Part shown: piece by piece, positions 34,726-64,000 of the stretch | How positions within the stretch are numbered: position 1 is the stretch's first letter | Layout: the number at the start of each line of letters is the position of its first letter | Assembly: GCF_006717075.1 (NCBI RefSeq) | Contig: NZ_VFQC01000001.1 | Location: 2,155,501-2,219,500 of the forward strand | From: Haloactinospora alba | Lineage (GTDB): Bacteria; Actinomycetota; Actinomycetes; Streptosporangiales; Streptosporangiaceae | DNA length: 64,000 bases | Direction of reading: 5' to 3' | Made by a program: the position numbers and the translations under genes | Notes under the pieces: model-generated | Told to the model about the DNA's origin: nothing | Database searches by the model: none | What the model saw: the letters and a program-made list of their open reading frames with translations, nothing else

Positions 34726-34770
34726 GAGACTGGGGGAAGCGGCAGGCGTAACGAGCAGGGGGTGATGGGA

Positions 34771-36132
34771 GTGGACCGACAACAGGAATTCGTTCTCCGC
34801 ACATTGGAGGAACGCGACATCCGCTTCGTGCGGTTGTGGTTCACCGACATACTCGGCTATCTCAAGTCGGTGGCCGTGGCCCCTGCCGAGCTGGAAGCCG
34901 CGTTCACCGAGGGCATAGGGTTCGACGGCTCGGCGATCGAGGGGTTCGCCCGGGTGTACGAGGCCGACATGCTGGCCCAGCCCGACCCGTCGACGTTCCA
35001 GGTGCTGCCGTGGCGCAACGAGCCGCACGGCACCGCCCGCATGTACTGCGACATCATGATGCCGGACGGCTCCCCCAGCTACGCCGACCCGAGGTACGTC
35101 CTCAAGCGGCAGCTCCAGCGGGCCTCCGACCTCGGGTTCACCTTCTACACCCACCCCGAGATCGAGTTCTACCTGCTGAAGAACATGCCCACCGGCGGCG
35201 AGGCCCCCGAACCCAACGACTCCGGTGGCTACTTCGACCACACGCCGCACAACAGCGCCCACGACTTCCGGCGCAACGCCATCAACATGCTGGAGGCCAT
35301 GGGGATCTCGGTGGAGTTCAGCCACCACGAGGGCGGACCGGGCCAGCAGGAGATCGACCTGCGGTACGCCGACGCGCTGACCACCGCCGACAACATCATG
35401 ACCTTCCGCCTGGTCATGCGGGAGGTGGCGATGGAGCAGGGCGTGTACGCCACGTTCATGCCCAAACCGTTCACCGAGCACCCGGGCTCGGGCATGCACA
35501 CGCACATGTCCCTGTTCGAGGGCGACCGGAACGCCTTCTACGAGCCGGGGGCGGAGTACCAGCTGTCCAAGGTCGGACGGGGGTTCATCGCCGGGGTGCT
35601 GCGGCACGCGAGCGAGATCACCGCGGTCTGCAACCAGTGGGTCAACTCCTACAAGCGGCTGTGGGACCACCCCACGGCCTCCGCCGGCGCCGGGGACGAG
35701 GCACCGGCCTACATCTGCTGGGGGCACAACAACCGTTCCGCCCTGGTTCGGGTGCCGATGTACAAACCCGCCAAGTCGACGTCCAGCAGGATCGAGTTCC
35801 GTTCCCTGGACACGGCGTGCAACCCCTACCTGACCTTCGCCGTCATCCTCGCGGCGGGGCTGAAGGGGATCGAGGAGGACTACGAGCTGCCGCCCGGCGC
35901 CGAGGACGACGTGTGGGCGCTGACCGACGCGGAGCGGCGCGCGCTCGGCATCGCACCGCTCCCGCAGAGCCTGGACGAGGCGATCCGCGCCATGGAGAGC
36001 AGCGAGCTCATCGCCGAGACTCTCGGGGAGCACGTGTTCGACTTCTTCCTGCGGAACAAGAAGGCCGAGTGGCAGGACTACCGCCGCCAGGTCACCCCCT
36101 ACGAGATCCAGCGCTACCTACCGACGCTGTAG
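34771..36132 (+). CDS. glnA2: Glutamine synthetase-like GlnA2
   Basis: 453 aa from GTG 34771 (VDRQQEFVLRTLEERDIRF), where the mycobacterial and Streptomyces GlnA2 proteins begin; ATG 34765 and GTG 34762 are in frame. GS motifs are present: FDGSAIEGFARV, HPEIEFYLL, SGMHTHMS and NNRSALVRVP. It lacks the LYDLPPEE adenylylation loop, having YELPPGAEDDVW. In S. coelicolor GlnA2 (SCO2241) was characterised as a gamma-glutamylpolyamine synthetase, and glnE-glnA2 linkage is conserved. Whether this one uses ammonia or polyamines cannot be told from sequence alone. Confidence 0.9.
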   Translation: MDRQQEFVLRTLEERDIRFVRLWFTDILGYLKSVAVAPAELEAAFTEGIGFDGSAIEGFARVYEADMLAQPDPSTFQVLPWRNEPHGTARMYCDIMMPDGSPSYADPRYVLKRQLQRASDLGFTFYTHPEIEFYLLKNMPTGGEAPEPNDSGGYFDHTPHNSAHDFRRNAINMLEAMGISVEFSHHEGGPGQQEIDLRYADALTTADNIMTFRLVMREVAMEQGVYATFMPKPFTEHPGSGMHTHMSLFEGDRNAFYEPGAEYQLSKVGRGFIAGVLRHASEITAVCNQWVNSYKRLWDHPTASAGAGDEAPAYICWGHNNRSALVRVPMYKPAKSTSSRIEFRSLDTACNPYLTFAVILAAGLKGIEEDYELPPGAEDDVWALTDAERRALGIAPLPQSLDEAIRAMESSELIAETLGEHVFDFFLRNKKAEWQDYRRQVTPYEIQRYLPTL

Positions 36133-49755: not shown

Positions 49756-49887
49756 GCGCGCTGCCCGGTGCGGGGCACGCCCGAAACGTGCCGCCGTGCC
49801 CGCGCAGCGGACCCGCCGGACGTTCCACCGGAAAGGAGTAGGACAGCGCGCTCCACCAGCGGGGAGCGGCCCTGGCTGTCCGGCACC

Positions 49888-51246
49888 ATGACGAGCGAGA
49901 CGCAGGCCACCGACCGGACCGCCGATGCCGAGGTCGTCCGGTTCACGTCCGAACTGATCCGGATCGACACCACCAATCACGGGGGAGGCCAGGGGTGGGA
50001 ACGCCCCGCCGCGGAGTACGTCGCCGCGCGGTTGGGCGAGGCGGGTCTCTCCCCGCGGATCCTGGAGTCGGCTCCCGGCCGCGCCAACGTGGTCGCCCGG
50101 GTCCGGGGGAACGATCCCGACGCCCCCGCGCTGCTCGTACACGGCCACCTGGACGTGGTGCCGGCGGACCCGGAGCTGTGGAGCGCGCCCCCGTTCTCCG
50201 GCGAGGTCCGCGACGGGACGGTCTTCGGCCGTGGCGCGGTGGACATGAAGAACACCGATGCCATGCTGCTCGCGTTGGTGCGTTCCTGGGCGCGCACCGG
50301 GACGCGGCCGCGCCGGGACATCGTGCTCGCGTTCACCGCGGACGAGGAGGACAGCGCCGCCTACGGCGCGGAGTGGCTGGTGCGCGAGCACCCCTCGCTC
50401 TTCTCCGACTGCGCCGCGGGCGTCAGCGAGTCGGGCGCGTTCACGTTCCACGCGCGGACCGTTTCCGGTGAGCCCGTACGGCTGTACCCGGTCGGCGCGG
50501 GAGAGCGCGGCTCGGCGTGGTTGCGGCTGACAGCCTCCGGCACCGCCGGCCACGGCTCCAAGGCCAACGACGACAACGCGGTGGGAGCGCTGGCCGCCGC
50601 GGTCACCCGCATCGACTCCCATGCCTGGCCGGTCCGGCTCACACCCGTCACCCGGGCGGCCCTGGCCGGGATCGGGGACGCCGTGGGCAGGCCGGTCGAC
50701 CCGGACGATGCCGGCTTCGACCCGCAGCGGGACCTGGAGAGCGTGCTGGCGGACTTCGGCCCGGCCGCCTCCCTCGTGCGGTCCACGCTCCGCAACAGCA
50801 CGAACCCGACCGTGCTGGAGGCCGGCTCCAAGGTCAACGTCATCCCCTCAAGGGCTTCCGCCCTGGTGGACGGGCGGATCCTTCCCGGCTGCGCCGAGGA
50901 GTTCCACACCACTCTCGACGAGCTCACCGGGGACCGCGTGGAGTGGGAGTACACCCACCGCTCCCCCGCACTGCTCTCCCCCGTGGACTCCCCCGTGTTC
51001 GCGGCGATGCGGGAGGCGCTGCTCGCGCACGACCCCGATGCGCACGTCGTCCCGGTCTGCCTCTCCGGCGGCACCGACGCCAAACAGTTCTCCGAGCTCG
51101 GCATCCCCGGGTACGGCTTCTCCCCGTTGCGCCTTCCGCCGTCACTGGACTACGGCGCGCTCTTCCACGGTGTTGACGAACGGGTGCCCGTCGACTCCCT
51201 CACGTTCGGTGTGCGGGTACTGGACCGGTTCCTCACGACAGTCTGA
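49888..51246 (+). CDS. M20 family metallopeptidase
   Basis: 452 aa from ATG 49888. Zinc-site motifs are VHGHLDVVPAD, GRGAVDMKNTDA and FTADEEDSAAYGAEWL. A dimerisation domain carries GTAGHGSKANDDNA, and the C-terminus has LSGGTDAKQFSELG. It most resembles the M20 branch annotated as peptidase or acylase acting on small peptides or N-acyl amino acids. In a one-strand cluster with other peptidases; the S9 gene starts 19 bp downstream. Confidence 0.9.
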   Translation: MTSETQATDRTADAEVVRFTSELIRIDTTNHGGGQGWERPAAEYVAARLGEAGLSPRILESAPGRANVVARVRGNDPDAPALLVHGHLDVVPADPELWSAPPFSGEVRDGTVFGRGAVDMKNTDAMLLALVRSWARTGTRPRRDIVLAFTADEEDSAAYGAEWLVREHPSLFSDCAAGVSESGAFTFHARTVSGEPVRLYPVGAGERGSAWLRLTASGTAGHGSKANDDNAVGALAAAVTRIDSHAWPVRLTPVTRAALAGIGDAVGRPVDPDDAGFDPQRDLESVLADFGPAASLVRSTLRNSTNPTVLEAGSKVNVIPSRASALVDGRILPGCAEEFHTTLDELTGDRVEWEYTHRSPALLSPVDSPVFAAMREALLAHDPDAHVVPVCLSGGTDAKQFSELGIPGYGFSPLRLPPSLDYGALFHGVDERVPVDSLTFGVRVLDRFLTTV

Positions 51247-51265
51247 CAAGGAGCAAGGACTCACG

Positions 51266-53305
51266 GTGACACAACGCATCCTGCCGCACGGTTCATGGCC
51301 CTCCCCGATATCGGCCGACGACGTCGCCCACCGCAGCGGCGCGCCCAACTGGCCCGCGGCGCTCGGCGACGAGGTCTTCTGGACGGAGTCCCGACCCGCG
51401 GAGGGCGGGCGGGTCACCGTGTGCCGGAGACGGCTGAGGGAAGCCGGGGAGGCCGCGACGGTTCTGCCCTCCCCGTGGAACGTCCGCAGTCGGGTGCACG
51501 AGTACGGCGGTCAGCCCTACACCGCATTGCGCGGCGCGGAAGGGACGACGCTCGTCTTCAGCGAGTTCAGCGACCAACGGCTGTACCGCCACCCCCCGGA
51601 CTCCGACCGCTCCCCCGCGCCCCTCACCCCGGAGCCCGGGGTTCCCAGCGCCGTGCGGTACGTGGAACCCGTCGCCGGACCCGGCGGGGACGAGGTGTGG
51701 TGCCTGCGCGAGACCCGCACCGGCCCGGCACCCACTGACGTGGCACGGGCGCTCGTCGCCGTGCCGCTGGACGGGTCGGCGGCGCGGGACGCCGGCGCGG
51801 TGCGGGTGGTGGCCTCGGGGCCCCGCTTCCTCGCGTGTCCGCGCGTCTCCCCCGACGGTCGGCGCCTGTCCTGGATCGGCTGGGACCACCCGAACATGCC
51901 GTGGGACTCCACGTTCCTGTACGTCGCCGAGATCGCGGCGGACGGAACGGCGTCGGGGGTACGCACCCTCGCGGGCGGCGACGACGAGGCCGTGGTGCAG
52001 GCAGAGTGGTCCGGTGAGACCACGCTGTACTGCGTCACCGACCCCTCCGGCTGGTGGAACCCGCACCGGATCACCCTGCCTGAGCCGGAGGGCGGCACCG
52101 CCCCGAGCAGCGCCCCGCCGGAACCGGTGAACCTGGCCCGGCGGGAGGAGGAGTTCGGCGGCCCCCTGTGGCAGTTGGGCCAGCGGTGGCTGCTACCGCT
52201 GCGCGACGGCCGGCTCGCCACGCTGCACGGGCGGGGAGCGCTCTCGCTGGGGATCCTCGCGCCGGACACGGGAGACATCACGGACCTAGCGAGCCCGCAC
52301 ACCGAGTGGACGGCCAAACTCGCCGTCGCGGGCGCGGACGGCCGGACCCTCGTGGGGATCGCCGCCTCCCCCGACATCCCGGCCGAGGTGGTCGCCGTCT
52401 CCCTTTCCGACGGAACGTGGCAGCCGCTGAACAGGGCGTCCGGAGCGGCCGAGGACGACCCCCACCGCGCCTACTTCCCGAATCCGCGGGAACGGCGGTT
52501 CACCGGCCCGGACGGACGCGAGATCCACGCCAGTCTGTACCCGCCGCGCAACCCGGACGCGGCCGCGCCGCACGGGGAGCTCCCCCCGTACGTCGTCTGG
52601 GCCCACGGCGGTCCGACGGGCCGCTCGCCCATGGTGCACGACCGGGAGATCGCCTACTTCACCAGCCGCGGTCTGGGCGTCGTGGAGGTGAACTACGGCG
52701 GTTCCACCGGTTACGGCCGCGCCTACCGGGAGCGGCTCCGCGGGAACTGGGGGGTCGTCGACGTGCAGGACTGCGTGGCGGTGGCCCGGGAGCTGGGCGA
52801 GGAAGGCTCCGTGGACCCGCAGCGGCTGGCCATCCGAGGCGGCAGCGCCGGGGGGTGGACCACCGCCGCGGCGCTCGCCTTCACGTCGGTCTTCCAGTGC
52901 GGGACGATCCTGTGCCCGATCGTGGACCTGGTGGGATGGCGCACCGGCGAGACGCACGACTTCGAGTCGCAGTACCTGGAAACCCTGGTCGGCCCGTGGC
53001 CGCGGGAGAGGGAGCGCTACGAGCAGCGCTCGCCGGTGAACCACGCCGCCTCCGTCACAGCGCCCTTCGTCCTCCTCCAGGGGTTGGAGGACGAGATCTG
53101 TCCGCCCGTGCAGTGCGAACGGTTCCTCGCGGGCTTCGAGGGCCGCGACGTACCGCACGCCTACCTGACGTTCGCGGGTGAGCAGCACGGCTTCCGGAAG
53201 GCGGAGAGCGTCCGCGCGGCGGTGCAGGCCGAGCTCTCGCTGTACGCCCAGGTGTTCGGTTTCGAGACGGACGCGGCCGCGGTCGCGCTGCGGCCGCACG
53301 GATGA
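51266..53305 (+). CDS. S9 family prolyl oligopeptidase / acylaminoacyl peptidase
   Basis: 679 aa from GTG 51266 (AAGGAGCAAGG upstream). The N-terminal two-thirds is a beta-propeller (for example RVSPDGRRLSWIGWDHPNMPWD). The C-terminal alpha/beta hydrolase has the nucleophile in RGGSAGGWTT, Asp in GLEDEICPP and His in GEQHGF. The propeller limits access to short peptides. No signal peptide, so it acts in the cytoplasm. Its stop overlaps the S66 start (ATGA). Confidence 0.93.
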   Translation: MTQRILPHGSWPSPISADDVAHRSGAPNWPAALGDEVFWTESRPAEGGRVTVCRRRLREAGEAATVLPSPWNVRSRVHEYGGQPYTALRGAEGTTLVFSEFSDQRLYRHPPDSDRSPAPLTPEPGVPSAVRYVEPVAGPGGDEVWCLRETRTGPAPTDVARALVAVPLDGSAARDAGAVRVVASGPRFLACPRVSPDGRRLSWIGWDHPNMPWDSTFLYVAEIAADGTASGVRTLAGGDDEAVVQAEWSGETTLYCVTDPSGWWNPHRITLPEPEGGTAPSSAPPEPVNLARREEEFGGPLWQLGQRWLLPLRDGRLATLHGRGALSLGILAPDTGDITDLASPHTEWTAKLAVAGADGRTLVGIAASPDIPAEVVAVSLSDGTWQPLNRASGAAEDDPHRAYFPNPRERRFTGPDGREIHASLYPPRNPDAAAPHGELPPYVVWAHGGPTGRSPMVHDREIAYFTSRGLGVVEVNYGGSTGYGRAYRERLRGNWGVVDVQDCVAVARELGEEGSVDPQRLAIRGGSAGGWTTAAALAFTSVFQCGTILCPIVDLVGWRTGETHDFESQYLETLVGPWPRERERYEQRSPVNHAASVTAPFVLLQGLEDEICPPVQCERFLAGFEGRDVPHAYLTFAGEQHGFRKAESVRAAVQAELSLYAQVFGFETDAAAVALRPHG

Positions 53306-54234
53306 GCCCCGGCCTCACCCGGCCGCCGCGGTTGCGGCCCGGCGACCGGGTCTCCGTCGTGGCTCCGTGCAGCCCGGTGGCGCGCGACCAGCTCACCACG
53401 GCGCTGCGGACCCTGCGCTCGTGGGGGCTGGATCCGGTTCCCGCACCGCACCTGTGGGACCGTCATCCCGGCTTCCGCCACCTGGCGGGCGAGGACGCCA
53501 ACCGGGCGCGGGACCTGCGGGATGCCTGGCTGGACCCGGACACCTCAGCGGTGTTCTGCGCCCGCGGCGGCGACGGCGCGCACCGGGTCCTGGACCTGCT
53601 GGACTTCGACGCGCTGCGGCGGGGGCGGGTCAAACCCCTCGTCGGGTTCAGCGACGTGACAGCGTTGCACGAGGCGTTCGCCGTCGAGCTCGGAGCCGCC
53701 ACCCTGCACGGTCCGGTGCTGGCGAGCAGGTACTTCGCCGAGGACGCGGTCAGCGCGGAGGAACTGCGCGCCACCCTGTTCGACCCCCGGTCCCGGCAGC
53801 GGTTGACCTCACCGCGGGCGCGCCCCCTGTTCGGCGGAACCGCGCGCGGGGTCACGCTCGGCGGCAACCTGAGCCTCCTCAGCGACAGTGTCGCCGCCCC
53901 GCACAGCCGCCCCTCGGCAGCGGGCGGGCTGGTGCTTCTGGAGGACGTGGGTGAGGACGTCTCGCGGATCGACAGGATGGTCACCCACCTGCTGCGCAGC
54001 GGGTGGCTGCGGGACGCGGCCGGGGTTGTGCTGGGCTCGTGGACGGACTGCACCCCGGACCCGGAGGCGGTCCGGAGACTGATGCGGGAACGGCTGGCTC
54101 CGCTGGGTGTGCCGGTGGTGTGGGGACTGTGGTTCGGGCACTGCGGCGGGCAGCTCACCGTCCCGCTGGGGGTCGGCGCGACACTGGACGCGGACGCCGG
54201 CACGCTCACGCTGGACGAGCCCGCCCTGCGGTGA
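53302..54234 (+). CDS. S66 family LD-carboxypeptidase
   Basis: 310 aa. The catalytic Ser lies in LVGFSDVTALH, with Glu in LLEDVGED and His in WFGHCGGQLTVPLG, the S66 triad. ARGGDGAHRVL is the usual family segment. LD-carboxypeptidases remove the terminal D-Ala from L,D bonds of murein tetrapeptides during recycling; some S66 enzymes act on microcin-like peptides (MccF). The ATG overlaps the S9 stop, and a D-aminopeptidase lies upstream, which favours cell-wall peptide recycling. Confidence 0.92.
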   Translation: MSPGLTRPPRLRPGDRVSVVAPCSPVARDQLTTALRTLRSWGLDPVPAPHLWDRHPGFRHLAGEDANRARDLRDAWLDPDTSAVFCARGGDGAHRVLDLLDFDALRRGRVKPLVGFSDVTALHEAFAVELGAATLHGPVLASRYFAEDAVSAEELRATLFDPRSRQRLTSPRARPLFGGTARGVTLGGNLSLLSDSVAAPHSRPSAAGGLVLLEDVGEDVSRIDRMVTHLLRSGWLRDAAGVVLGSWTDCTPDPEAVRRLMRERLAPLGVPVVWGLWFGHCGGQLTVPLGVGATLDADAGTLTLDEPALR

Positions 54235-54236
54235 TC

Positions 54237-54989
54237 TCAGGGGCGCGGCTCGCCGAGGAAGGCGCGCAGCAGGACCTCGCTGCCCTCCAGGTGTTCGCCG
54301 ATGGCGGCGCGGGTGGCGTCCGGGTCCTGGGCGAGGATCGCCTCGACGATGGTGCGGTGCTGGACGTTGCTGTGTTCCAGGTTCCTGGCCAGCATCGGCA
54401 TCGCGTTCAGCAGCTCGTTGATCCGCATCCGGACGTCCGCCAGCGTCGTCGACAGCGAGGCCGAACCGGCGAGCTCGGCGATGGTGAGGTGGAAGTCGGT
54501 GTCGTGGCGGCGGTAGTCCTCCACGGCGGCCGCCTCCACCTCGGCGAGGCGTGTGTTCAACAGCTGGCGCTGTTCGCTGGTGAGGCCGGTCTCCGCCAGT
54601 CGGACCCCCGCGCCGACCTCGAGGACGCGGCGGAAGGCGAACAGGTCCTCCAGACCGCCGTCGAGGGTGTGCAGCACCCGCAGCGCCTCCTCGCGGCTGG
54701 GCCGGGGTGGCACGTAGGTGACGAAGGTGCCTCCGCCCCGGCCGCGGCGAGGCTCGACGTACCCGGCCTCCTGGAGTGCGCGGATGGCCTCGCGCAGCGT
54801 GATCCGGCTGATTCCGAGTCGGGCGGCGAGGTCGCGTTCGGCGGGGAAGCGCTCGCCGGGGACCACGACGCCCAGCTTGATGGCCGAGAGCAGCCGCTCC
54901 ACGGTCTCCTCGAACGCGTTCCCGCCGCGGACCGTGCGGAAAACGGCGCCGAACGCCGGGCCGACCTGTGGCTCCGCCCCGTCCTGCAT
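54237..54989 (-). CDS. FadR-subfamily GntR regulator of the amine-use cluster
   Basis: 250 aa from ATG 54989. GntR winged helix at about residues 25-90 (LGVVVPGERFPAERDLAARLG, ISRITLREAIRALQEAGYVE, RRGRGGGTFV). The FCD ligand domain follows, with RRVLEVGAGVRLAE, DTDFHLTIAELAGS and HRTIVEAILAQD; its Asp/His residues bind metal in relatives. It lies next to the permease and ligase genes on the same side, so it probably represses the cluster until an amine or its glutamylated form appears. Confidence 0.9.
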   Translation of the reverse strand: MQDGAEPQVGPAFGAVFRTVRGGNAFEETVERLLSAIKLGVVVPGERFPAERDLAARLGISRITLREAIRALQEAGYVEPRRGRGGGTFVTYVPPRPSREEALRVLHTLDGGLEDLFAFRRVLEVGAGVRLAETGLTSEQRQLLNTRLAEVEAAAVEDYRRHDTDFHLTIAELAGSASLSTTLADVRMRINELLNAMPMLARNLEHSNVQHRTIVEAILAQDPDATRAAIGEHLEGSEVLLRAFLGEPRP

Positions 54990-55176
54990 CGCGCCCTTTC
55001 CGACAGTTGCCGCTCCCGCCCCCACCCTAGGCCCTGTGGGACGGACGCTCGTCCCGCCGCGCGTCGCGCGGCGCCGCGCCGGCGGCGCAGCAGCCACCGG
55101 CCGTGCCGGCTCGGCGCTGGCCACGCCGCCCGCGACGAACAGCGTCCGCCGCACGGGGCCCGGAACCGCCCGGGGG

Positions 55177-56628
55177 TCAGCTGAGTTCGGACTCGGCGCG
55201 CTCGAGCATGGCGAACTCCTCCTCGGGGGCGTTGGCCACGAGCCGGTGCCGGGAGTAGGTCAGGAAGTAGACGAGGAACACGGCGAATATGGCCGCGGCG
55301 ATACCCGCGCCCACCATGTCGACGAAGAACGTCGCCGCCACCGCGCACAGCGCCAGTGCCAGCGCTGTTCCGGTGGTGAGGGTTCCTCCCGGTGTGCGGA
55401 AGGGGCGCCGCAGTTCCGGTTCGCGGCGGCGCAGCACGATGTGCGACACCATCATCAGGGCGTAGGAGACGGTGGCCCCGAACACCGCGATGTTGATCAG
55501 CTTGTCGCCGTTGCCCACGGCGGTGGCCAGCGCGAACCCGATGGTTCCCGGCACGATCAGGGCGAGGTAGGGGGTCTTGCGTTTTCCGGTGACCGAGAGC
55601 CACCGGGGCAGGTAGCCGGCGCGGGAGAGCGCGAACAGCTGCCGCGAGTAGGCGAAGATGATGGAGAAGAAGGAGGCGACGAGGCCTGCCAGGCCGACGT
55701 AGTTGACGATGTCGGCGATCAGGGGGTTGCCGCCGTAGGCCTCCCGCAGCGCCTCGGGCAGGGGGTTGTCCGAGCTGGCGAGCGCGCTCGCGCCCGCCCC
55801 GCCGGGTGCGAGTACCAGCATGCAGGCGGCCGTCACCAGCAGGACGCCCATACTCGCGATGATGCCGCGCGGCATGTCCCGGGCCGGGTTGCGTGCTTCC
55901 TCCGCGGCGAGGGGGACTCCCTCGACGGCGAGGAAGAACCAGATACCGAACACGAATGCGCTGAGCACCCCGGCGTACCCGAACGGGAGGAAGGCGCTGG
56001 CTCCCGCCGCGTCGGTGGGGGTGATGTCGACGAGGTTCCCCGGGTCGAACCGGGGGATCATGCCGACGGTGAACACCGCCAGGGCGAGCATGGCCACCCC
56101 GGTGATGACGAACATCAGTCGCAGCGCCTCACCGACGCCCCACACGTGGATGCCGACGAACACCGCGTAACAGGCGAGGTAGACCGGCCAGGCGTTGGTA
56201 ATCCCGAACAGCCCGAGCGCCTCGACGTAGCCGCCGATGAACACCGCGATCGCGGCCGGGGCGATGGAGTACTCGATGAGGATCGCCGTTCCGGTGGCGA
56301 ACCCGCCGATCGGCCCCATGGCGCGGCGGGCGAACCCGTATCCGGCGCCCGCCGTGGGGAGGGTGGAGGCCAGTTCGGCCAGACCGAGCACCATGAAGAG
56401 GTACATCGTGCCCATGAGGACGGTGGCGATGAGCAGCCCGCCCCAACCGCCCTCACCGATTCCGAAGTTCCACCCGGCGAAGTCCCCGGAGATGACGTAG
56501 GAGACGCCGAGCCCCGCGAGCAGCAGCCATCCCGCTGCTCCGCGTCTCAGCTGGCGGTTACGTAGGTACTCGTCGTCGACGTGCGCGTAGCCGGCACCGT
56601 GTGCATGCGTCGGCGGCCGCTGGGTCAT
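55177..56628 (-). CDS. APC family permease, ethanolamine permease (EAT) type
   Basis: 483 aa from ATG 56628 (GGGAG upstream). Twelve membrane helices. The LLLAGLGVSYVISGDFAGWNFG region and FFLAVEGVPLAAEEARNPARDMPRG (in part) are typical of EAT-type amino acid/ethanolamine permeases, as is FSIIFAYSRQLFALSRAG. Divergent from the GlnA4-like ligase gene, sharing a 233-bp control region. Likely imports the amine that the cluster degrades. Confidence 0.88.
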   Translation of the reverse strand: MTQRPPTHAHGAGYAHVDDEYLRNRQLRRGAAGWLLLAGLGVSYVISGDFAGWNFGIGEGGWGGLLIATVLMGTMYLFMVLGLAELASTLPTAGAGYGFARRAMGPIGGFATGTAILIEYSIAPAAIAVFIGGYVEALGLFGITNAWPVYLACYAVFVGIHVWGVGEALRLMFVITGVAMLALAVFTVGMIPRFDPGNLVDITPTDAAGASAFLPFGYAGVLSAFVFGIWFFLAVEGVPLAAEEARNPARDMPRGIIASMGVLLVTAACMLVLAPGGAGASALASSDNPLPEALREAYGGNPLIADIVNYVGLAGLVASFFSIIFAYSRQLFALSRAGYLPRWLSVTGKRKTPYLALIVPGTIGFALATAVGNGDKLINIAVFGATVSYALMMVSHIVLRRREPELRRPFRTPGGTLTTGTALALALCAVAATFFVDMVGAGIAAAIFAVFLVYFLTYSRHRLVANAPEEEFAMLERAESELS

Positions 56629-56708
56629 AGTGTGCGCTCCCCTCACGCTGGGTGGTGCTGGGGACCGTCCCCCGCCCCTATCCCGCCGGTTCCGGAAGGC
56701 CGCGAACC

Positions 56709-56836
56709 GAAAGGTATAAGGTCGGTCCTTTCTGTGATTTGAGCGATCATGCGCCGGGCACAGCGCAGCTGTCAAGGGAGGTTGCACCCCATTGACACTC
56801 CGCTGGGGAGCTGCTTCCATGCAACAAATGGTTTGC
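56709..56836. promoter_or_regulatory. Divergent control region of the amine-use cluster
   Basis: Candidate sites: GAAAGG-n12-CCTTTC (56709-56732), a TTGACA at 56792-56797 for the ligase gene, and the imperfect palindrome GCAACAAATGGTTTGC (56821-56836) just downstream of where transcription should begin. The last is the best candidate operator for the FadR-type regulator. Confidence 0.45.
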
Positions 56837-56861
56837 TTCTGAGCCTTAAGGAGGCTCCAGG

Positions 56862-58226
56862 GTGCACGCGAACGACAACGGCCACCCCCTCGCCCTGGGC
56901 GAGCTGCGCGCCGCCATCGAATCCGGCGAGATCGACACGGTCCTGGTGGCCTTCACCGACATGCAAGGACGACTGCAGGGGAAACGGCTCTCCGGACGCT
57001 TCTTCCTCGAGGACGTACTCGAACACGGCACCGACGGGTGCGACTACCTGCTCGCCGTCGACGTCGAGATGAACACCGTCGGCGGCTACGCCATGTCCTC
57101 CTGGGAGACGGGCTACGGCGACTTCGTCATGCGTCCCGACCTCGCCACCCTGCGCCGCACACCATGGCAGCCCGGACAGGTCATGGTCACCGCAGACCTC
57201 ACCTGGCACGACGGCTCTCCCGTCGCTCCCTCGCCCCGGCAGGTCCTCAAGGCCCAGACCGACCGGCTCACCGAGCGGGGCTGGCGGGCCATGGTGGGCA
57301 CCGAACTGGAGTTCCTCGTCTACCGCGACTCCTACGAGGACGCCTGGGACCGCGGCTACCGGAACCTCACCCCGGCCAACCGCTACAACGTCGACTACTC
57401 CGTGCTGGGCGGCGCCCGCGTGGAACCACTGCTGCGGCGCGTCCGCAACGAGATGGACGGGGCCGGGCTGTACGTCGAGTCGGCGAAGGGCGAGTGCAAC
57501 CCGGGACAGCACGAGATCGCGTTCCGGTTCGACGAGGCCGTCGCCACCTGCGACCAGCACTCCATCTACAAGAACGCGGCCAAGGAGATCGCCGCCCAGG
57601 AGGGCATGGCCATCACGTTCATGGCCAAACCCAACGAACGCGAGGGCAACTCCTGCCACATCCACATCTCCCTGCGGGGCGCCGACGGCACACCCGTCCT
57701 CGCTGACAGCGACGGACTCTCCGCCGCGGGCCGGCACTTCCTCGCAGGCCAGGTCGCCGCGCTGCGCGAACTCACCCTGCTGCTGGCGCCCAACATCAAC
57801 TCCTACAAGCGCTACGTCCCCGGAAGCTTCGCCCCCACCACGGCGGCGTGGGGACGGGACAACCGCACCTGCGCCCTGCGCCTCGTCGGCCACGGCCCCA
57901 GCCTGCGGGTGGAGAACCGCGTCCCCGGCGGGGACGTCAACCCCTACCTGGCGACAGCCGCTCTCATCGCGGCCGGGCTCGACGGGATCGACCGGGAGCT
58001 GGAGCCGGGAGAGCCCTGCGACGGCAACGCCTACGCGGGGGAGGCGCCGAACGTTCCCGGGACGCTGCGCGAGGCCCTGGAGCTGTGGGAGAAGAGCGAA
58101 CTCGCCCGCACCGCCCTGGGCGACGAGGTCGTCGACCACTACGCCAACTACGCGCGGGTGGAGCTGGCCGCGTTCGACTCCGCGGTGACCGACTGGGAGA
58201 TGTACCGCTGTTTCGAGCGGTTGTGA
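56862..58226 (+). CDS. glnA4: GS-like gamma-glutamylamide ligase (GlnA4/PuuA-like)
   Basis: 454 aa from GTG 56862 with AAGGAGG 8 bp upstream. A glutamine-synthetase fold with altered motifs: GTELEFLVY, SAKGECNPGQHEIAFR, NSCHIHIS, NNRTCALRL-like (DNRTCALRLVG) and VENRVPGGDVNPYL. The adenylylation loop is absent. Such enzymes join glutamate to an amine rather than to ammonia. In S. coelicolor GlnA4 makes gamma-glutamylethanolamide. The neighbouring permease, dehydrogenases and hydrolase form a matching pathway. The amine substrate is inferred from context. Confidence 0.85.
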   Translation: MHANDNGHPLALGELRAAIESGEIDTVLVAFTDMQGRLQGKRLSGRFFLEDVLEHGTDGCDYLLAVDVEMNTVGGYAMSSWETGYGDFVMRPDLATLRRTPWQPGQVMVTADLTWHDGSPVAPSPRQVLKAQTDRLTERGWRAMVGTELEFLVYRDSYEDAWDRGYRNLTPANRYNVDYSVLGGARVEPLLRRVRNEMDGAGLYVESAKGECNPGQHEIAFRFDEAVATCDQHSIYKNAAKEIAAQEGMAITFMAKPNEREGNSCHIHISLRGADGTPVLADSDGLSAAGRHFLAGQVAALRELTLLLAPNINSYKRYVPGSFAPTTAAWGRDNRTCALRLVGHGPSLRVENRVPGGDVNPYLATAALIAAGLDGIDRELEPGEPCDGNAYAGEAPNVPGTLREALELWEKSELARTALGDEVVDHYANYARVELAAFDSAVTDWEMYRCFERL

Positions 58227-58253
58227 GGACGGCGGAAGAAAAGGAGCACCACA

Positions 58254-59627
58254 GTGACAGAGCCCTCGTCGATCGAGGTGATCGACCCGGCCACCAACGA
58301 GACGGTCACCACCGTCGCCCTCGCCTCGGCGGAGGAGACCGACGCGGCGGTGGCGCGGGCGCGGGCCGCGCAACCGGCGTGGAGCGCGCGACCTCCCGGG
58401 GAGCGGGCCGCCCTGCTGCGCGCGTTCGCCGCCGAGATCGACACGCACCTCGACGAGCTCGCCGAGCTGGAAGTGCGCAACGCCGGCCACCCGATCACCC
58501 AGGCCCGCGCCGAGGCCGCCCAGGCGCGGGACGTCCTCGCCTATTTCGCCGGCGCTCCGGAACGCAACTCCGGAAAGCAGATCCCCACCCCGGGAGGATG
58601 GAGCGTCACCTTCGCCGAACCGCTCGGCGTGGTGGGGGTGATCGTGCCGTGGAACTTCCCGATGCCGATCCTCACGTGGGGCGCGGCCCCCGCGCTGGCG
58701 GCGGGCAACACCGTGGTGGTCAAACCGGCCGAGCTGACACCGCTCACCGCCGTGCGGCTCGGGGAGCTGGCGCGGGCGGCGGGCCTCCCCGAGGGGGTGC
58801 TGCAGGTGGTTCCGGGCACGGGCGCCGTGGCGGGCGAACGCCTGGTGCGCCACCCGGACGTCGCCAAGATCGCGTTCACCGGCTCCACCAGCGTGGGTAA
58901 ACGCATCATGGCGGCGTGCGCCGAGGACATGAAGCGCGTCACGCTGGAGCTCGGCGGCAAGAGCGCCAACATCGTCTTCGCCGACGCCGACCTGGAACGG
59001 GCGGCGGCCGCCGCCCCCTACGGCGTGTTCGACAACGCCGGCCAGGACTGCTGCGCGCGGTCACGGCTCCTGGTGCAGCGCTCCGTGTTCGACAGGTTCA
59101 TGGAACTGATGGAACCAGCGGTCGCCGGCGTGGCCGTGGGGGACCCGTGGAACACGGGCACCGAGATGGGGCCCCTGATCTCGGCGGCCCACCGCGACCG
59201 GGTCGCCTCCTACGTCCCCGACGGCGCCCCGGTCGCGATGCGGGGCTCCGTGCCCGACGGCCCCGGCTTCTGGTTCCCGCCCACCGTGCTGGCCCCGGTG
59301 TCCCCCGCCGATCCCGCGGTGACCGACGAGATCTTCGGTCCCGTGGTGGCGGTACTGCCGTTCGACACCGAGGAGGAGGCCGTCCGGATCGCCAACACCA
59401 CCGACACCGGCCTCTCCGGATCCATCTGGACCCGGGACGTCGGTCGGGCGCTGCGGGTGTCCCGCGGTGTCGCGGCCGGAAACCTCTCCGTCAACTCGCA
59501 CTCCGCCGTCCGGCACTGGACCCCGTTCGGCGGGGTCAAGCAGTCCGGCATCGGCCGGGAGCTCGGACCCGACGCGCTGGACGCGTTCACCGAGACCAAA
59601 ACGGTGTTCGTCGCCGACGACACCTGA
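58254..59627 (+). CDS. Aldehyde dehydrogenase of the glutamylated-amine pathway
   Basis: 457 aa from GTG 58254. Aldehyde dehydrogenase motifs: VIVPWNFPMPI, the NAD site FTGSTSVGKRI, the general base Glu in LELGGKSANIV, the nucleophile Cys in NAGQDCCARSR and EIFGPVVAVLPF. PuuC-like by context: it would oxidise a gamma-glutamylamino aldehyde to the acid. 27 bp after the ligase gene, with an SDR gene 36 bp downstream. Confidence 0.92.
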   Translation: MTEPSSIEVIDPATNETVTTVALASAEETDAAVARARAAQPAWSARPPGERAALLRAFAAEIDTHLDELAELEVRNAGHPITQARAEAAQARDVLAYFAGAPERNSGKQIPTPGGWSVTFAEPLGVVGVIVPWNFPMPILTWGAAPALAAGNTVVVKPAELTPLTAVRLGELARAAGLPEGVLQVVPGTGAVAGERLVRHPDVAKIAFTGSTSVGKRIMAACAEDMKRVTLELGGKSANIVFADADLERAAAAAPYGVFDNAGQDCCARSRLLVQRSVFDRFMELMEPAVAGVAVGDPWNTGTEMGPLISAAHRDRVASYVPDGAPVAMRGSVPDGPGFWFPPTVLAPVSPADPAVTDEIFGPVVAVLPFDTEEEAVRIANTTDTGLSGSIWTRDVGRALRVSRGVAAGNLSVNSHSAVRHWTPFGGVKQSGIGRELGPDALDAFTETKTVFVADDT

Positions 59628-59663
59628 CCCGTCATCAACCACGACCAGGGGAGCACTGAGAGA

Positions 59664-60428
59664 ATGCAACGTTTCGCGCAGCGTGTCGCCGTCATCACCG
59701 GCGCGGGCGGCGGGATCGGCAGGGCGACCGCACTGCGGATGGCGAGCGAGGGGGCCCGCGTGGTCGCCGTCGACGCCGACCACGCAGCGGGCAAACAGAC
59801 CGCCGAGGAGGCCGGGGGGCTGTTCGTCCCCGCCGACGTCACGGACGGCGAGGACGTCCGGCAGGCGTTCGCCACCGCCAGGGACACCTACGGCAGTGTC
59901 GACGTCGCGTTCAACAACGCGGGCATCTCCCCCTCGGAGGACGCCTCCATCCTGGACACGGACCTGGAAACCTGGAAACGGGTGCAGGAGACCAACCTGA
60001 CCTCGGTGTACCTGTGCTGCCAGCACGCGTTGGAGCACATGCGGACCCAGGGGCGCGGTGCGATCGTCAACACCGCCTCCTTCGTCGCCACCATGGGCGC
60101 GGCCACGTCCCAGATCTCCTACACCGCGAGCAAGGGCGGGGTCCTGTCCCTCAGCCGGGAGCTGGGCGTGCAGTTCGCCCGCGAGGGCATCCGGGTGAAC
60201 GCGCTGTCCCCCGGGCCGGTGAACACGCCGCTGCTGCAGGAGCTGTTCGCCAACGACCCGGAACTCGCCCAGCGGCGCCTGGTACACGTACCGTTCGGCC
60301 GGTTCGCCGAACCGGAGGAGATCGCCGCCGCCACCGCGTTCCTGGCCAGCGACGACGCGTCGTTCATCACCGCCGCCAACTTCGTCGTGGACGGCGGTAT
60401 CTCCGGCGCCTACGTGACGCCGCTGTGA
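59664..60428 (+). CDS. SDR family dehydrogenase of the cluster
   Basis: 254 aa. Classical SDR: TGAGGGIG nucleotide loop near residue 13, NNAG (FNNAGISP), catalytic Ser in NTASFVATMG, and YTASKGG (Y-x3-K). ADVTD and VDAD suggest NAD preference. In the pathway it could oxidise the hydroxyl of a glutamylated amino alcohol to the aldehyde, the step before the aldehyde dehydrogenase. Amine oxidases such as PuuB are absent. Confidence 0.92.
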   Translation: MQRFAQRVAVITGAGGGIGRATALRMASEGARVVAVDADHAAGKQTAEEAGGLFVPADVTDGEDVRQAFATARDTYGSVDVAFNNAGISPSEDASILDTDLETWKRVQETNLTSVYLCCQHALEHMRTQGRGAIVNTASFVATMGAATSQISYTASKGGVLSLSRELGVQFAREGIRVNALSPGPVNTPLLQELFANDPELAQRRLVHVPFGRFAEPEEIAAATAFLASDDASFITAANFVVDGGISGAYVTPL

Positions 60429-60460
60429 GCGGGAACCGCCCCACGGAAGGAGAAACCGAC

Positions 60461-61192
60461 GTGGTCCGCCCCGTGATCGGAGTGTCGGGCTATGCCGAAC
60501 AGGCACGGTGGGGGCAGGCGTGGGACATGCCGACCACCCTCCTCCCCCGCGCCTACGTCGACTCGCTGGTCGACGTAGGCGCCGCACCGGTGGTGCTGCC
60601 GCCGGTTCCGGAGGCGGCGGTGTCGGTGGCGGAGCGGCTGGACGGTCTCGTCCTCGCCGGCGGGGGCGACATAGGACCGGAACGCTACGGTGCCGCGCCG
60701 GACGGCAACAGTACCGGCGTCCAGCGGTCCCGGGACGGTTCGGAACTCGGCCTGCTGGCGGCCGCCCTGGAGGCCGGGATCCCGGTGCTCGGCATCTGCC
60801 GCGGGATGCAGGTCCTGAACGTGGCCCGGGGCGGGACGCTGCACCAGCACCTGCCCGAGGTCCTCGGCAGCGACGAGCACCGGCAACGGCTCGCCCGGTT
60901 CGACCCGCACCCGGTGACGGTGGCACCGGACACGCACACCGCTCGCGCTCTGGGACGGACCGAGCTGGACGTTCCCTCCTACCACCACCAGGGCATCGCC
61001 GAGCTGGGAGAGGGCGTCGTCGCCACGGCCTGGGCCGCCGACGGCACCGTGGAGGCTCTCGAGTACGCCGGGACACCCGGTGTCCTGGGGGTGCAGTGGC
61101 ACCCCGAGATGGGCACGGACCCGAGCCTGTTCGGGTGGCTGACCTCCCGCGCCCGGGCCCCCGGACGGCGGAAGGGGGAGACGGCGCGCTGA
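60461..61192 (+). CDS. C26 class I glutamine amidotransferase-like gamma-glutamyl hydrolase (PuuD-like)
   Basis: 243 aa from GTG 60461 (GGAAGGAG upstream); GTG 60425 is an in-frame alternative. PIGVSGY-like start (RPVIGVSGYAEQA), GGGDIGPERYG, the nucleophile Cys in LGICRGMQVLN and catalytic His in GVQWHPEMG. PuuD-type enzymes cleave the gamma-glutamyl amide, releasing glutamate and the product amino acid. It closes the operon and completes the pathway. Confidence 0.9.
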   Translation: MVRPVIGVSGYAEQARWGQAWDMPTTLLPRAYVDSLVDVGAAPVVLPPVPEAAVSVAERLDGLVLAGGGDIGPERYGAAPDGNSTGVQRSRDGSELGLLAAALEAGIPVLGICRGMQVLNVARGGTLHQHLPEVLGSDEHRQRLARFDPHPVTVAPDTHTARALGRTELDVPSYHHQGIAELGEGVVATAWAADGTVEALEYAGTPGVLGVQWHPEMGTDPSLFGWLTSRARAPGRRKGETAR

Positions 61193-61288: not shown

Positions 61289-62332
61289 TCACGCCCCGCT
61301 TCCGTCCGAGAGCGCCCAGTGGCATGCCACGTGGGAACCGGTACCGCCGGGAAGGACGCCGGGGTCCTCGTCAGCGCACCGCTCGGCCACCCCAACGCGT
61401 TGGGCCTCCCCCGAGGCCAGAACCGGGCAGCGCACGTGGAACCGGCAGCCGCCCGGGATCCGCGCCGGGTCGGGTGGTTCCCCGGACAGGATCTCCGGCC
61501 TGTCCGCGCCGGACTCCGGAAGCACGGACAGCAGCGCCTGGGTGTAGGGGTGGCGCGGGGCCGAGAGCGTATCGTCCACGGCCCCCGACTCGACCACGCG
61601 TCCCAGGTACATCACCGCCACCCGGTCGGCGATGTTCCACGCCAGCCCCAGGTCGTGCGTGACGACGAGGGCCGCCAGTCCCAGCTCGTCCCGCAGCCGC
61701 AGCAGCAGCTGCAGAATCTCGCCGCGGACGGAGGCGTCCAGGGAGGCGACCGGCTCATCGGCGATGATCACCTCGGGTTCCAGCACGAGGGCGCCGGCGA
61801 TCACCACCCGCTGGCGCTGCCCGCCCGAGAGCTGGTGCGGGTAGCTCAGGAAGAACCGTTCCGGCGGACGCAGTCCGGCGCGGTACAGCGCGTCGGACAC
61901 CCTCCGCTCCTCGCCCGGGGTGGTTCCCTCGTGTATGCGCAGCCCCTCGGCGACCGCCTCGTAGACCGTGTGCCGGGGGTTGAGCGCTCCCGTCGGGTCC
62001 TGCAGCACGAGCTGCACCCGCCTCCGGTAGCGGCGCAGCGCACGAGCGGTGTAGTCCAACCGCGCCCCGTCGAACACCACACGTCCGGCCGCGGGGCGCT
62101 CCAACCCGAGCAGGGCGCGGGCGAGCGTGGTCTTGCCGCACCCGGACTCGCCCACGAGCGCGACGATCTCACCCGCGTGCACGTCCAGGTCGACCCCGTC
62201 GACAGCACGGGCGGGCGCGCCTCCCCCGCCCCTCCCGGCGAACTCCACCCGCAGTCCGGCCGCGCTGAGCAGTGGTGCCCGCGCGCTCCCGGCGGGCGCC
62301 GCGACGTCGTCTCGTGCGGGGTGGGTGGTCAC
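61289..62332 (-). CDS. oppF: Oligopeptide ABC transporter, ATP-binding protein (OppF-type)
   Basis: 347 aa from GTG 62332, overlapping the stop of the upstream ATPase gene. Walker [10 protein letters not shown], signature LSGGQRQRV, Walker B VIIADEP and the H-loop THDLGLAW. The C-terminal oligopeptide/dipeptide extension has paired cysteines (GGCRFHVRCPV) typical of Opp/Dpp ATPases. Couples ATP hydrolysis to peptide import with the second ATPase. Last gene of the operon. Confidence 0.93.
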   Translation of the reverse strand: MTTHPARDDVAAPAGSARAPLLSAAGLRVEFAGRGGGGAPARAVDGVDLDVHAGEIVALVGESGCGKTTLARALLGLERPAAGRVVFDGARLDYTARALRRYRRRVQLVLQDPTGALNPRHTVYEAVAEGLRIHEGTTPGEERRVSDALYRAGLRPPERFFLSYPHQLSGGQRQRVVIAGALVLEPEVIIADEPVASLDASVRGEILQLLLRLRDELGLAALVVTHDLGLAWNIADRVAVMYLGRVVESGAVDDTLSAPRHPYTQALLSVLPESGADRPEILSGEPPDPARIPGGCRFHVRCPVLASGEAQRVGVAERCADEDPGVLPGGTGSHVACHWALSDGSGA

Positions 62333-63315
62333 CGGGTCTCCTCGAATTCGGCGTCGGCGGAGTACACGCGCACGCAGGCCGAGCTGCGGTCCGGCGCCGC
62401 GGGCCACAGCACCGGATCCACGGTGGAGCAGCGGTCCTCGGCCACCGGGCAGCGCGGCCGGAAGGCGCAGCCGCTGGGCAGTGCCGCCGGGTCGGGCGGG
62501 TCGCCCGGCAGCCCCTGCGGGTTGCGGCGGGACCGGGGGTCTCCGATCCGCGGGAAGGCCGCGCTGAGCGCAGCCGCGTAGGGGTGGCGGGCGTCGCCGA
62601 ACACCTCCTGGGAGGGCCCCTCCTCCACGACCCGTCCGGCGTACATCACGGCGAGGCGGTCGCACGTGTCGGCCAGCACCGTGAGGTCGTGGCTGATCAT
62701 GAGCATGCTGATGCCGTGCTCCCCCACCAGTTGGCCGAGGAGCCGCAGGATCTGCGCCTGGATCATGACGTCCAGCGCCGTGGTGGGCTCGTCCGCGATG
62801 ATCAGGCGCGGCCGGCACGCCAGCGCCATGGCGATCATGACGCGCTGGCGCTGCCCGCCGGAGAGCTCGTGCGGGTAGGAGGAGGAGCGCCAAGGCGGCA
62901 GACCCACCTGTTCCAGCAGGGCCCCGACGCGCCGGGACGCCTCGGCCGGTGTGGTGTTCTCGTGCAGCAGGATCGGTTCGGCGATCTGGTCCCCGACCCG
63001 CTGCACCGCGTTCAGCGCGTGCATCGCGCCCTGGAAGACGACGGAGGCTCCGGCCCAGCGGACCGCGCGCAACCGTCCCCACCGCATGGCCAGGACGTCC
63101 TCGCCGTCGAGGCGGACCTGGCCCTCCAACCGCGCCGAGGCCGGCAGCAGCCGCAGCAGCGCCAGCGCGACCGTCGACTTCCCGCAGCCCGACTCCCCGG
63201 CCACTCCGAGGGTGTTTCCGGGTTCGAGCGCGAGGGAGACGCCACGCACCGCGGGGAGCTCACCCGAGGCCGTGCGGTAGGTGACGTGCAGGTCGTCCAC
63301 GTTGAGGTACGTCAC
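62329..63315 (-). CDS. oppD: Oligopeptide ABC transporter, ATP-binding protein (OppD-type)
   Basis: 328 aa from GTG 63315. Walker [22 protein letters not shown], Walker [14 protein letters not shown]-loop SHDLTVLAD and the C-terminal [11 protein letters not shown] extension. Partner of the OppF-type ATPase. It overlaps the permease stop upstream and the oppF start downstream by 4 bp each, so the genes are translationally coupled. Confidence 0.93.
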
Positions 63316-64000
63316 TGGCGCTCCCGCAGTCGGGGGTTGAGCACACCTTCGATCGCGCGCCCGCACAGGGTGAAGGACAGGGCGACCAGTGCGATGGCCA
63401 GACCGGGCGGGATCATGTACCACCACACTCCGGAGCTGACCGCTCCGGCGTTGCGGGCGTCCTGCAGCACCCCGCCCCACGAGATCGTGCCCGGGTCGCC
63501 CAGCCCGAGGAAGGCCAGGGTCGACTCCATGATGATGGACTCGGCGACCAGCAGGGTGGTCTGTGCCAGCACGACCGGCAGCACGTTCGGGAGGACGTGG
63601 CGCTTCATCACGTGCCGGTGGCCCCCGCCGAGGGCACGCGCGCGCTCGATGTAGGGGCGGGCTTCCACCGCTATGGTCTGGGCCCGCACGAGGCGGGCGG
63701 TGGTGGGCCAGGCGGTCACGCCGATGGCGATGATGATGGTGAGCGTGCTGCGGCTCATGACCGCCGCCAGCGCCACCGCCATCACCAGGGCGGGCAGGAC
63801 GAGGAACCAGTCGGTGACGCGCATCAGGACGGCGGAGCTCCACCCCCCGAAGTGCCCGGCGAGGATACCGACCAGTGTTCCCAGGGTCACCGACATGAAC
63901 GTGGCGAGGAAACCGACGGTGAGGGAGATGCGGGCTCCCCAGATGACAAGGTCCAGCACGGAGCGGCCGAAGTTGTCGGTTCCCAGCGGGTACTCGGCGC
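63312..64000 (-). CDS. oppC: Oligopeptide ABC transporter permease (OppC-type), 5' end outside the window
   Basis: The visible 228 codons continue to the window edge; the N-terminus is missing. The visible start PLGTDNFGRSVLDLVIWGARISL (in part) is the DppC/OppC family entry to the core, and the EAA loop reads YIERARALGGGHRHVMKRHVLPN (in part). Four or five membrane helices are seen. Forms the pore with an OppB-type partner expected beyond the window. Given the peptidase cluster in this window, peptide use is a theme, but a link is only suggestive. Confidence 0.93.
   Translation of the reverse strand, partial: AEYPLGTDNFGRSVLDLVIWGARISLTVGFLATFMSVTLGTLVGILAGHFGGWSSAVLMRVTDWFLVLPALVMAVALAAVMSRSTLTIIIAIGVTAWPTTARLVRAQTIAVEARPYIERARALGGGHRHVMKRHVLPNVLPVVLAQTTLLVAESIIMESTLAFLGLGDPGTISWGGVLQDARNAGAVSSGVWWYMIPPGLAIALVALSFTLCGRAIEGVLNPRLRERQ

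What the first reader, a model, noticed from the sequence alone, without database searches (positions are those of the whole stretch)
54237..61192. Amine-glutamylation gene cluster with an SDR instead of an amine oxidase
Permease, GlnA4-like ligase, aldehyde dehydrogenase, SDR and gamma-glutamyl hydrolase with a FadR-type regulator. In the Puu pathway an oxidase acts on a diamine. An alcohol-oxidising SDR here suggests ethanolamine: glutamylethanolamide to aldehyde, to glutamylglycine, to glutamate plus glycine. This would allow ethanolamine use without a microcompartment.
Basis: inference. Interest (0 to 1): 0.6.

Follow-up and report, generated by a model that had tools for sequence, protein, structure and literature searches.

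The report
Known glutamyl-ethanolamine utilisation gene cluster
This is an actinobacterial gene cluster that very probably breaks ethanolamine down to glycine by first capping it with glutamate; the pathway was published for Streptomyces in 2019, so the find is correct but not new.

Summary
At 54237-61192 lie a GntR/FCD (FadR-type) regulator, an ethanolamine permease (TIGR00908, 528.5 bits, cut-off 381.75), a GlnA4-type ligase, an aldehyde dehydrogenase, a short-chain dehydrogenase (NF004713) and a peptidase-C26 hydrolase. The ethanolamine reading holds, but is in print: Krysenko et al. 2019 (PMC6529630) showed that S. coelicolor GlnA4 makes gamma-glutamylethanolamide, is needed for growth on ethanolamine and is repressed by EpuRI, and proposed the same later steps without a microcompartment. 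Two of that paper's primers match this window exactly, and its epuRI primers fall in the regulator orthologue of Streptomyces loci. What I add is linkage: in 150 genomes of the order, 85 of 86 NF004713 genes lie within 5 kb of a glnA4-like gene; in 98 genomes of the class 38 have both, 3 glnA4 alone, none the SDR alone. NF004713, named 3-oxoacyl-ACP reductase, is thus very probably gamma-glutamylethanolamide dehydrogenase. The steps after ligation are unproven in actinobacteria as far as I saw. Side lead: a sister clade of GlnA4 sits in siderophore-type operons.

The parts
54237..54989 (-). EpuRI-type repressor, GntR family with FCD domain (FadR subfamily)
   Evidence: GntR 56.9 bits, FCD 67.4 bits; 44-52% identical to the regulator ORF of Streptomyces loci, in which published epuRI primers fall; start ATG at 54989 read
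55177..56628 (-). ethanolamine permease
   Evidence: TIGR00908 528.5 bits against cut-off 381.75; 59-65% identical to permeases of the Streptomyces glnA4 loci that have one
56629..56861 (.). divergent promoter region between permease and glnA4
   Evidence: sequence; TTGACA (56792-56797) followed by GGTYTG in 16 of 17 permease-type promoter rows, window included
56711..56731 (+). putative repressor operator AAGGTATAAGGTCGGTCCTTT
   Evidence: core GGWCGGWCC in 9 of 17 permease-type promoter rows (rows L050 and L085 are very probably the same record); one place in the window (pattern drawn from the window and its relatives, so not an independent test)
56826..56835 (+). putative second operator element AAATGGTTTG near the glnA4 start site
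   Evidence: GGTYTG after TTGACA in 16 of 17 rows; function inferred
56862..58226 (+). GlnA4-type gamma-glutamylethanolamide synthetase
   Evidence: 68-82% identical to the 80 named loci kept; grouped with ligases of SDR-bearing clusters, apart from the window's GlnA1 and GlnA2; 13 of 13 metal, glutamate, ADP and flap residues named in PMC6529630 present at one constant offset that I chose to fit
58254..59627 (+). aldehyde dehydrogenase, proposed gamma-glutamylacetaldehyde to gamma-glutamylglycine
   Evidence: Aldedh 551 bits; published SCO1612 reverse primer matches exactly
59664..60428 (+). SDR (NF004713), proposed NAD-dependent gamma-glutamylethanolamide dehydrogenase
   Evidence: 455.8 bits against cut-off 404; N111, S139, Y153, K157 and D37 invariant in 98 aligned rows; linked to glnA4
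60461..61192 (+). peptidase-C26/PuuD-type hydrolase, proposed gamma-glutamylglycine hydrolase
   Evidence: Peptidase_C26 211.6 bits; solved-structure matches include Lin1909 protein 3fij (best) and PuuD 6vtv; GICRGMQ and QWHPE motifs read

Best explanation
This is the actinobacterial glnA4 ethanolamine-utilisation cluster. The permease imports ethanolamine. GlnA4 couples its amine to the gamma-carboxyl of glutamate with ATP (shown for S. coelicolor GlnA4; inferred here by orthology). The SDR oxidises the free alcohol of gamma-glutamylethanolamide to the aldehyde with NAD (inferred). The ALDH oxidises that to gamma-glutamylglycine (inferred). The C26 hydrolase releases glutamate, which is recycled, and glycine (inferred). 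Acetaldehyde is never formed, so no microcompartment is needed. The FCD regulator represses the divergent operons until ethanolamine is present (repression of glnA4 shown for EpuRI in S. coelicolor; operator inferred here).
For: Permease above the ethanolamine-permease cut-off. Gene-by-gene orthology with Streptomyces glnA4 clusters, two published S. coelicolor primers matching the window exactly (glnA4 reverse, SCO1612 reverse) and epuRI primers falling in the orthologous regulator of Streptomyces loci. Place in the tree and active-site residues. S. coelicolor GlnA4: product seen by LC-MS, Km 0.47 mM for ethanolamine, described as specific for ethanolamine; epuRI deletion allows glnA4 expression on ammonium (PMC6529630 sections 11, 13, 14). 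SDR-glnA4 linkage: 85 of 86 places in the order sample, 36 of 39 places in the class sample. No EutB match in this genome while E. coli, among the 14 controls, rings. A glutamylation pathway for ethanolamine is induced by phosphatidylethanolamine in Phaeobacter.
Against: No protein of this window was assayed. The SDR, ALDH and hydrolase steps are predictions in the paper as well. NCBIfam names the SDR 3-oxoacyl-ACP reductase. The paper's text places SCO1615 in the formylglutamate amidohydrolase family, though its figure legend says glutamine amidotransferase; the Streptomyces loci here have a C26 gene at that place. The permease is beside the cluster in only 35 of 80 named loci. Two fetched loci (L061, L063) show no ALDH nearby. 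The published Km of GlnA4 for glutamate, 85 mM, is high. Three SDR places of the class sample are not within 5 kb of glnA4: G164 (other contig), G201 (partial match, other contig) and G218 (a second SDR, 18 kb away).
Confidence: 0.92

Rival explanations
1. The cluster serves another amino alcohol or monoamine, for example 2-amino-1-propanol or isopropanolamine, by the same chemistry, with ethanolamine a side substrate.
For: SDR and ligase chemistry do not fix the chain; isopropylamine/alaninol glutamylation is known in Pseudomonas (recalled; the search listed no primary paper on it).
Against: Permease passes the ethanolamine permease cut-off; the orthologous S. coelicolor GlnA4 is described as specific for ethanolamine among the amines tested.
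Confidence: 0.06
2. A polyamine (Puu-like) pathway: putrescine is glutamylated and oxidised.
For: The C26 hydrolase matches PuuD 6vtv and the PuuD family NF008471 at 88.1 bits, below its cut-off of 266; the ALDH matches PuuC NF007352 at 377.5 bits, below its cut-off of 850.
Against: Ligase scores 211.8 bits against the gamma-glutamylputrescine synthetase cut-off of 650; no amine oxidase in the cluster (the rest of the genome was not searched for one); the S. coelicolor glnA4 mutant still grows on putrescine, cadaverine and spermidine (PMC6529630, passage); the window carries a separate GlnA2-like gene at 34762.
Confidence: 0.01
3. The SDR is a fatty-acid 3-oxoacyl-ACP reductase as NCBIfam names it and only sits beside glnA4.
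For: Family name NF004713/PRK06057.
Against: 85 of 86 places in the order sample and 36 of 39 in the class sample lie within 5 kb of a glnA4-like gene; no genome of the class sample has the SDR without glnA4; 0 of 14 control genomes exceed the family cut-off, although such bacteria make fatty acids with FabG (established knowledge).
Confidence: 0.03

Closest known systems
S. coelicolor glnA4 (SCO1613) ethanolamine cluster SCO1610-SCO1615 (Krysenko et al. 2019, PMC6529630)
   Same: Same set: glnA4, SDR (SCO1611), ALDH (SCO1612), repressor EpuRI (SCO1614), glutamine-amidotransferase-like gene (orf5 of its figure 2 legend; SCO1615 in the text, there called formylglutamate amidohydrolase family); ethanolamine permease in other Streptomyces.
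   Different: Here the permease, not the regulator, lies next to and divergent from glnA4, the hydrolase is downstream of the SDR on the same strand, and the permease gene is kept (the paper finds it missing in S. coelicolor).
Chromohalobacter salexigens pathway (PMC9397018 table 2, passage) and Phaeobacter MED193 operon (PMC10132767 section 9)
   Same: Same four chemical steps.
   Different: C. salexigens is listed with an iron-dependent dehydrogenase (PF00465) and a PF05013 amidohydrolase; Phaeobacter has a TRAP transporter and an RpiR regulator. Here SDR, C26, APC-type permease and FCD regulator.
E. coli Puu putrescine pathway (recalled)
   Same: Glutamylation, aldehyde dehydrogenase, PuuD-type C26 hydrolase.
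   Different: Puu uses an amine oxidase on a diamine; here an alcohol dehydrogenase, and the ligase does not pass the GGputSyn cut-off.
Eut microcompartment pathway (recalled)
   Same: Substrate.
   Different: No EutB match in this genome; no acetaldehyde in the proposed route.

Membership tests
glnA4 (gamma-glutamylethanolamide) cluster of actinobacteria | GlnA4 orthologue | tested here: met
glnA4 (gamma-glutamylethanolamide) cluster of actinobacteria | adjacent SDR, ALDH and amidotransferase-like (C26) hydrolase | tested here: met
glnA4 (gamma-glutamylethanolamide) cluster of actinobacteria | EpuRI-type regulator | tested here: met
   FCD/GntR, 44-52% identical to the ORF of Streptomyces loci in which epuRI primers fall (reverse primer 0-3 mismatches in 6 of 6 loci tested, forward primer up to 3 mismatches in 4 of 6)
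glnA4 (gamma-glutamylethanolamide) cluster of actinobacteria | ethanolamine permease (optional) | tested here: met
   TIGR00908 above cut-off
glnA4 (gamma-glutamylethanolamide) cluster of actinobacteria | ligase activity with ethanolamine | not testable with these tools
   shown in the literature seen for S. coelicolor GlnA4
Puu putrescine pathway | gamma-glutamylputrescine synthetase (NF045547 cut-off 650) | tested here: not met
   211.8 bits
Puu putrescine pathway | amine oxidase (PuuB) in the cluster | tested here: not met
   no such domain among the nine proteins scanned; genome not searched
Eut pathway | ethanolamine ammonia-lyase EutB in the genome | tested here: not met
   no match at E 0.001; E. 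coli control positive
Chromohalobacter-type glutamylation pathway | iron-dependent alcohol dehydrogenase PF00465 and PF05013 hydrolase in the cluster | tested here: not met
   SDR and PF07722 instead; genome not searched

The most novel reading that the evidence does not exclude
NF004713/PRK06057, now named 3-oxoacyl-ACP reductase and with a solved structure that bears no functional name (4wec), is the dedicated NAD-dependent gamma-glutamylethanolamide dehydrogenase of actinobacteria, so that its presence alone marks microcompartment-free ethanolamine use; the cluster is switched by an FCD repressor binding the GGTCGGTCC and GGTYTG elements of the divergent promoter.
Probability: 0.8. Interest if true: 0.3.

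Novelty: already known. Interest (0 to 1): 0.17.

Why it matters
It shows by orthology that a published nitrogen- and carbon-scavenging route is present in this genome and many relatives, and the linkage counts give a firm reason to rename a widespread, generically named SDR family.

Novelty: rejected after reading parts of PMC6529630. Puu-type polyamine reading: rejected (family cut-offs, no oxidase in the cluster). Eut: rejected (no EutB). One shared palindrome as operator: counts of exact 5-base dyads over 91 promoter rows gave no dominant one (best 13 of 91), so the operator stays a suggestion. The search for the operator in the window used a pattern taken from the window and its relatives and proves nothing alone. 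Numbering check: at their predicted starts, five Streptomyces orthologues did not show the paper's residues at the paper's own numbers, so I used one constant offset on the window protein, chosen to fit. Literature: SCO1611, SCO1612 and the intermediates; 20 of 55 papers listed; Chromohalobacter; 6 of 6; isopropylamine/alaninol; 4 of 4; M. tuberculosis locus tags recalled by me; 2 of 2, neither on this pathway by the start of its abstract. No paper assaying the actinobacterial SDR was seen in these listings; most subscription journals are not held. No structure prediction was run, since it would not decide the substrate.

Row handling: place tables were transcribed by hand into scripts; the lists are cut at the weak end. 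One search counts SDR places over the family cut-off and the glnA4-like places down to two at 39-42% identity; 146 of its 150 genomes are of the window's own family. The class sample (98 genomes) shares six genomes with the order sample, and its SDR count includes one partial match below the cut-off (G201). SDR rows were kept if over 300 bits and 240 aligned residues.
Full report
What is there. The stretch 54237-61192 holds six genes: regulator (-), permease (-), then a divergent operon ligase-ALDH-SDR-hydrolase (+), with ribosome-binding-like sequences and short gaps read by eye. Pfam and NCBIfam assign them clearly. The permease passes the curated cut-off of the ethanolamine permease model; the SDR passes the cut-off of NF004713. 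The genome (4.94 Mb, 4 contigs, 98.65% complete) has three Gln-synt_C matches, all in this window: a type I glutamine synthetase at 4910 (666.8 bits), a GlnA2-like gene at 34762 (454.7 bits against the GlnA cut-off of 429.15) and this one, far below that cut-off (238.7). EutB is absent.

What it is. Krysenko et al. 2019 (PMC6529630; abstract, search passages and sections 11-14 seen) describe in S. coelicolor the cluster SCO1610-SCO1615: GlnA4 makes gamma-glutamylethanolamide in vitro, the mutant cannot grow on ethanolamine, EpuRI represses glnA4, and SCO1611 (short-chain dehydrogenase), SCO1612 (aldehyde dehydrogenase) and SCO1615 are proposed for the next three steps; they state that the pathway is not encapsulated. 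A permease gene from S. pristinaespiralis improved growth on ethanolamine. On SCO1615 the paper is uneven: its text puts it in the formylglutamate amidohydrolase family, its figure legend says glutamine amidotransferase; the Streptomyces loci fetched here have a C26 gene beside the regulator.

Link between that cluster and this window. In these 80 loci the window proteins find glnA4, aldh and sdr in 78, the regulator in 75, the hydrolase in 72 and the permease in 35; the two without aldh and sdr end beside glnA4. The published glnA4 reverse and SCO1612 reverse primers match the window with no mismatch; the two forward primers match only with five, which means little. In six Streptomyces loci tested, the epuRI reverse primer matches with 0-3 mismatches inside the ORF that is 44-52% identical to the window regulator, and the forward primer in 4 of 6; no epuRI primer matches the window's own regulator. 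A tree of 33 ligases puts the window ligase with relatives from SDR-bearing clusters and away from GlnA1 and GlnA2; forks among the SDR-linked groups are partly unresolved and the deep branches are long. Thirteen active-site residues listed in the paper are all present at a constant offset of 8, which I chose to fit; of the paper's two model-dependent candidates for each of two pocket positions, one of the first pair (D69, not D81) and both of the second agree.

The SDR. NF004713 scores in the order sample fall into two groups, at least 456.5 bits and at most 228.5 in the rows listed. Of the 86 places over the cut-off, in 85 of 150 genomes, 85 lie within 5 kb of a glnA4-like gene; the exception is in a fragmented genome (G046, 240 contigs). 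All 83 listed glnA4 genes of at least 66% identity have the SDR beside them. In 98 genomes of the class, 38 have both, 3 have glnA4 only (G171 at a contig end; G185 and G217 with 54-56% identical relatives), none has the SDR only and 57 have neither; 36 of 39 SDR places are within 5 kb. The Fisher value of 5e-24 ignores shared ancestry. The catalytic residues N111, S139, Y153 and K157 and the acidic D37, which in SDRs favours NAD (established knowledge), are invariant in 98 aligned rows; so are R204, R205, H208, R213 and the C-terminal Y250-V251-T252-P253, candidates for binding the glutamyl part (inference). The nearest solved structure by sequence is 4wec, named only 'short chain dehydrogenase'.

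Regulation. Between permease and glnA4 (56629-56861), 16 of 17 permease-type promoter rows keep TTGACA followed by GGTYTG, and 9 of 17 keep GGWCGGWCC. Placement around the likely glnA4 start fits a repressor, as shown for EpuRI, but the sites are a suggestion; no dominant palindrome was found.

Variants. For C. salexigens a review table lists an iron-dependent dehydrogenase (PF00465) and a PF05013 hydrolase for the same chemistry (PMC9397018, passages). In Phaeobacter MED193 the operon proteins rise on phosphatidylethanolamine, and the authors call them closely related to genes demonstrated to work in C. salexigens and Agrobacterium (PMC10132767, section 9); PMC6529630 calls the C. salexigens pathway predicted in silico. 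So more than one enzyme set serves this route, and both kinds are in print.

Verdict. Observation confirmed, interpretation supported, novelty: already known. Interest is low; what is left open is direct enzymology of the SDR, ALDH and hydrolase in actinobacteria.

Side lead. A clade beside GlnA4 (52-61% identical; 8 rows with support 100/100) lacks the SDR set. All 16 such loci fetched (L064-L075 and L078-L081) carry IucA/IucC and Lys/Orn monooxygenase homologues close to the ligase (two IucA/IucC places in L064-L075, one in L078-L081), and 15 of 16 a pyridoxal-dependent decarboxylase (not seen in L078, a 7.6 kb contig); Pfam names were checked on L075. No PF13523 acyltransferase match (the IucB/DesC kind, recalled) at E 0.001 lies within these 16 stretches. 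A GS-type ligase acylating an N-hydroxylated diamine with glutamate, giving a gamma-glutamyl hydroxamate, would explain this; it is a guess. Searches (2 of 2 papers listed; 10 of 89; 12 of 650) showed no paper on it among the titles listed.

Noticed in passing
L064-L075 and L078-L081 (for example L075 194-9886): A sister clade of GlnA4 ligases (52-61% identical) lies in siderophore-type operons with N-hydroxylase, IucA/IucC synthetases (16 of 16 loci) and decarboxylase (15 of 16) but no PF13523 acyltransferase match in the stretches; the ligase may make gamma-glutamyl hydroxamates.
   Followed up: partly
window 4910-6334 and 34762-36132: All three Gln-synt_C matches of the 4.94 Mb genome (GlnA1, GlnA2-like, GlnA4) lie within this one 64 kb window.
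   Followed up: partly
window 49768-54234: Beside the regulator are an M20 peptidase, an S9 prolyl-oligopeptidase and an S66 LD-carboxypeptidase; the S9 and S66 pair is on the same side of the cluster in L050/L085, and S9 in L044 and L045.
   Followed up: no
window 61289-63959 (-): Downstream, on the other strand, ORFs read by eye as oligopeptide/dipeptide ABC transporter ATPases and a permease (list).
   Followed up: no
L083 4938-11879 and L082 2565-11979: Distant GlnA4-like ligases (39-41%) in similar clusters: in L083 with SDR (40%), C26, ALDH (31%) and a GntR-like regulator; in L082 with ALDH (57%), C26, a regulator and a permease (27%) but no SDR, perhaps for other amines.
   Followed up: no
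G208 (1.4 Mb genome, one contig): A very small actinobacterial genome keeps glnA4 and the SDR together, 1 of 5 sampled genomes of its genus g63.
   Followed up: no
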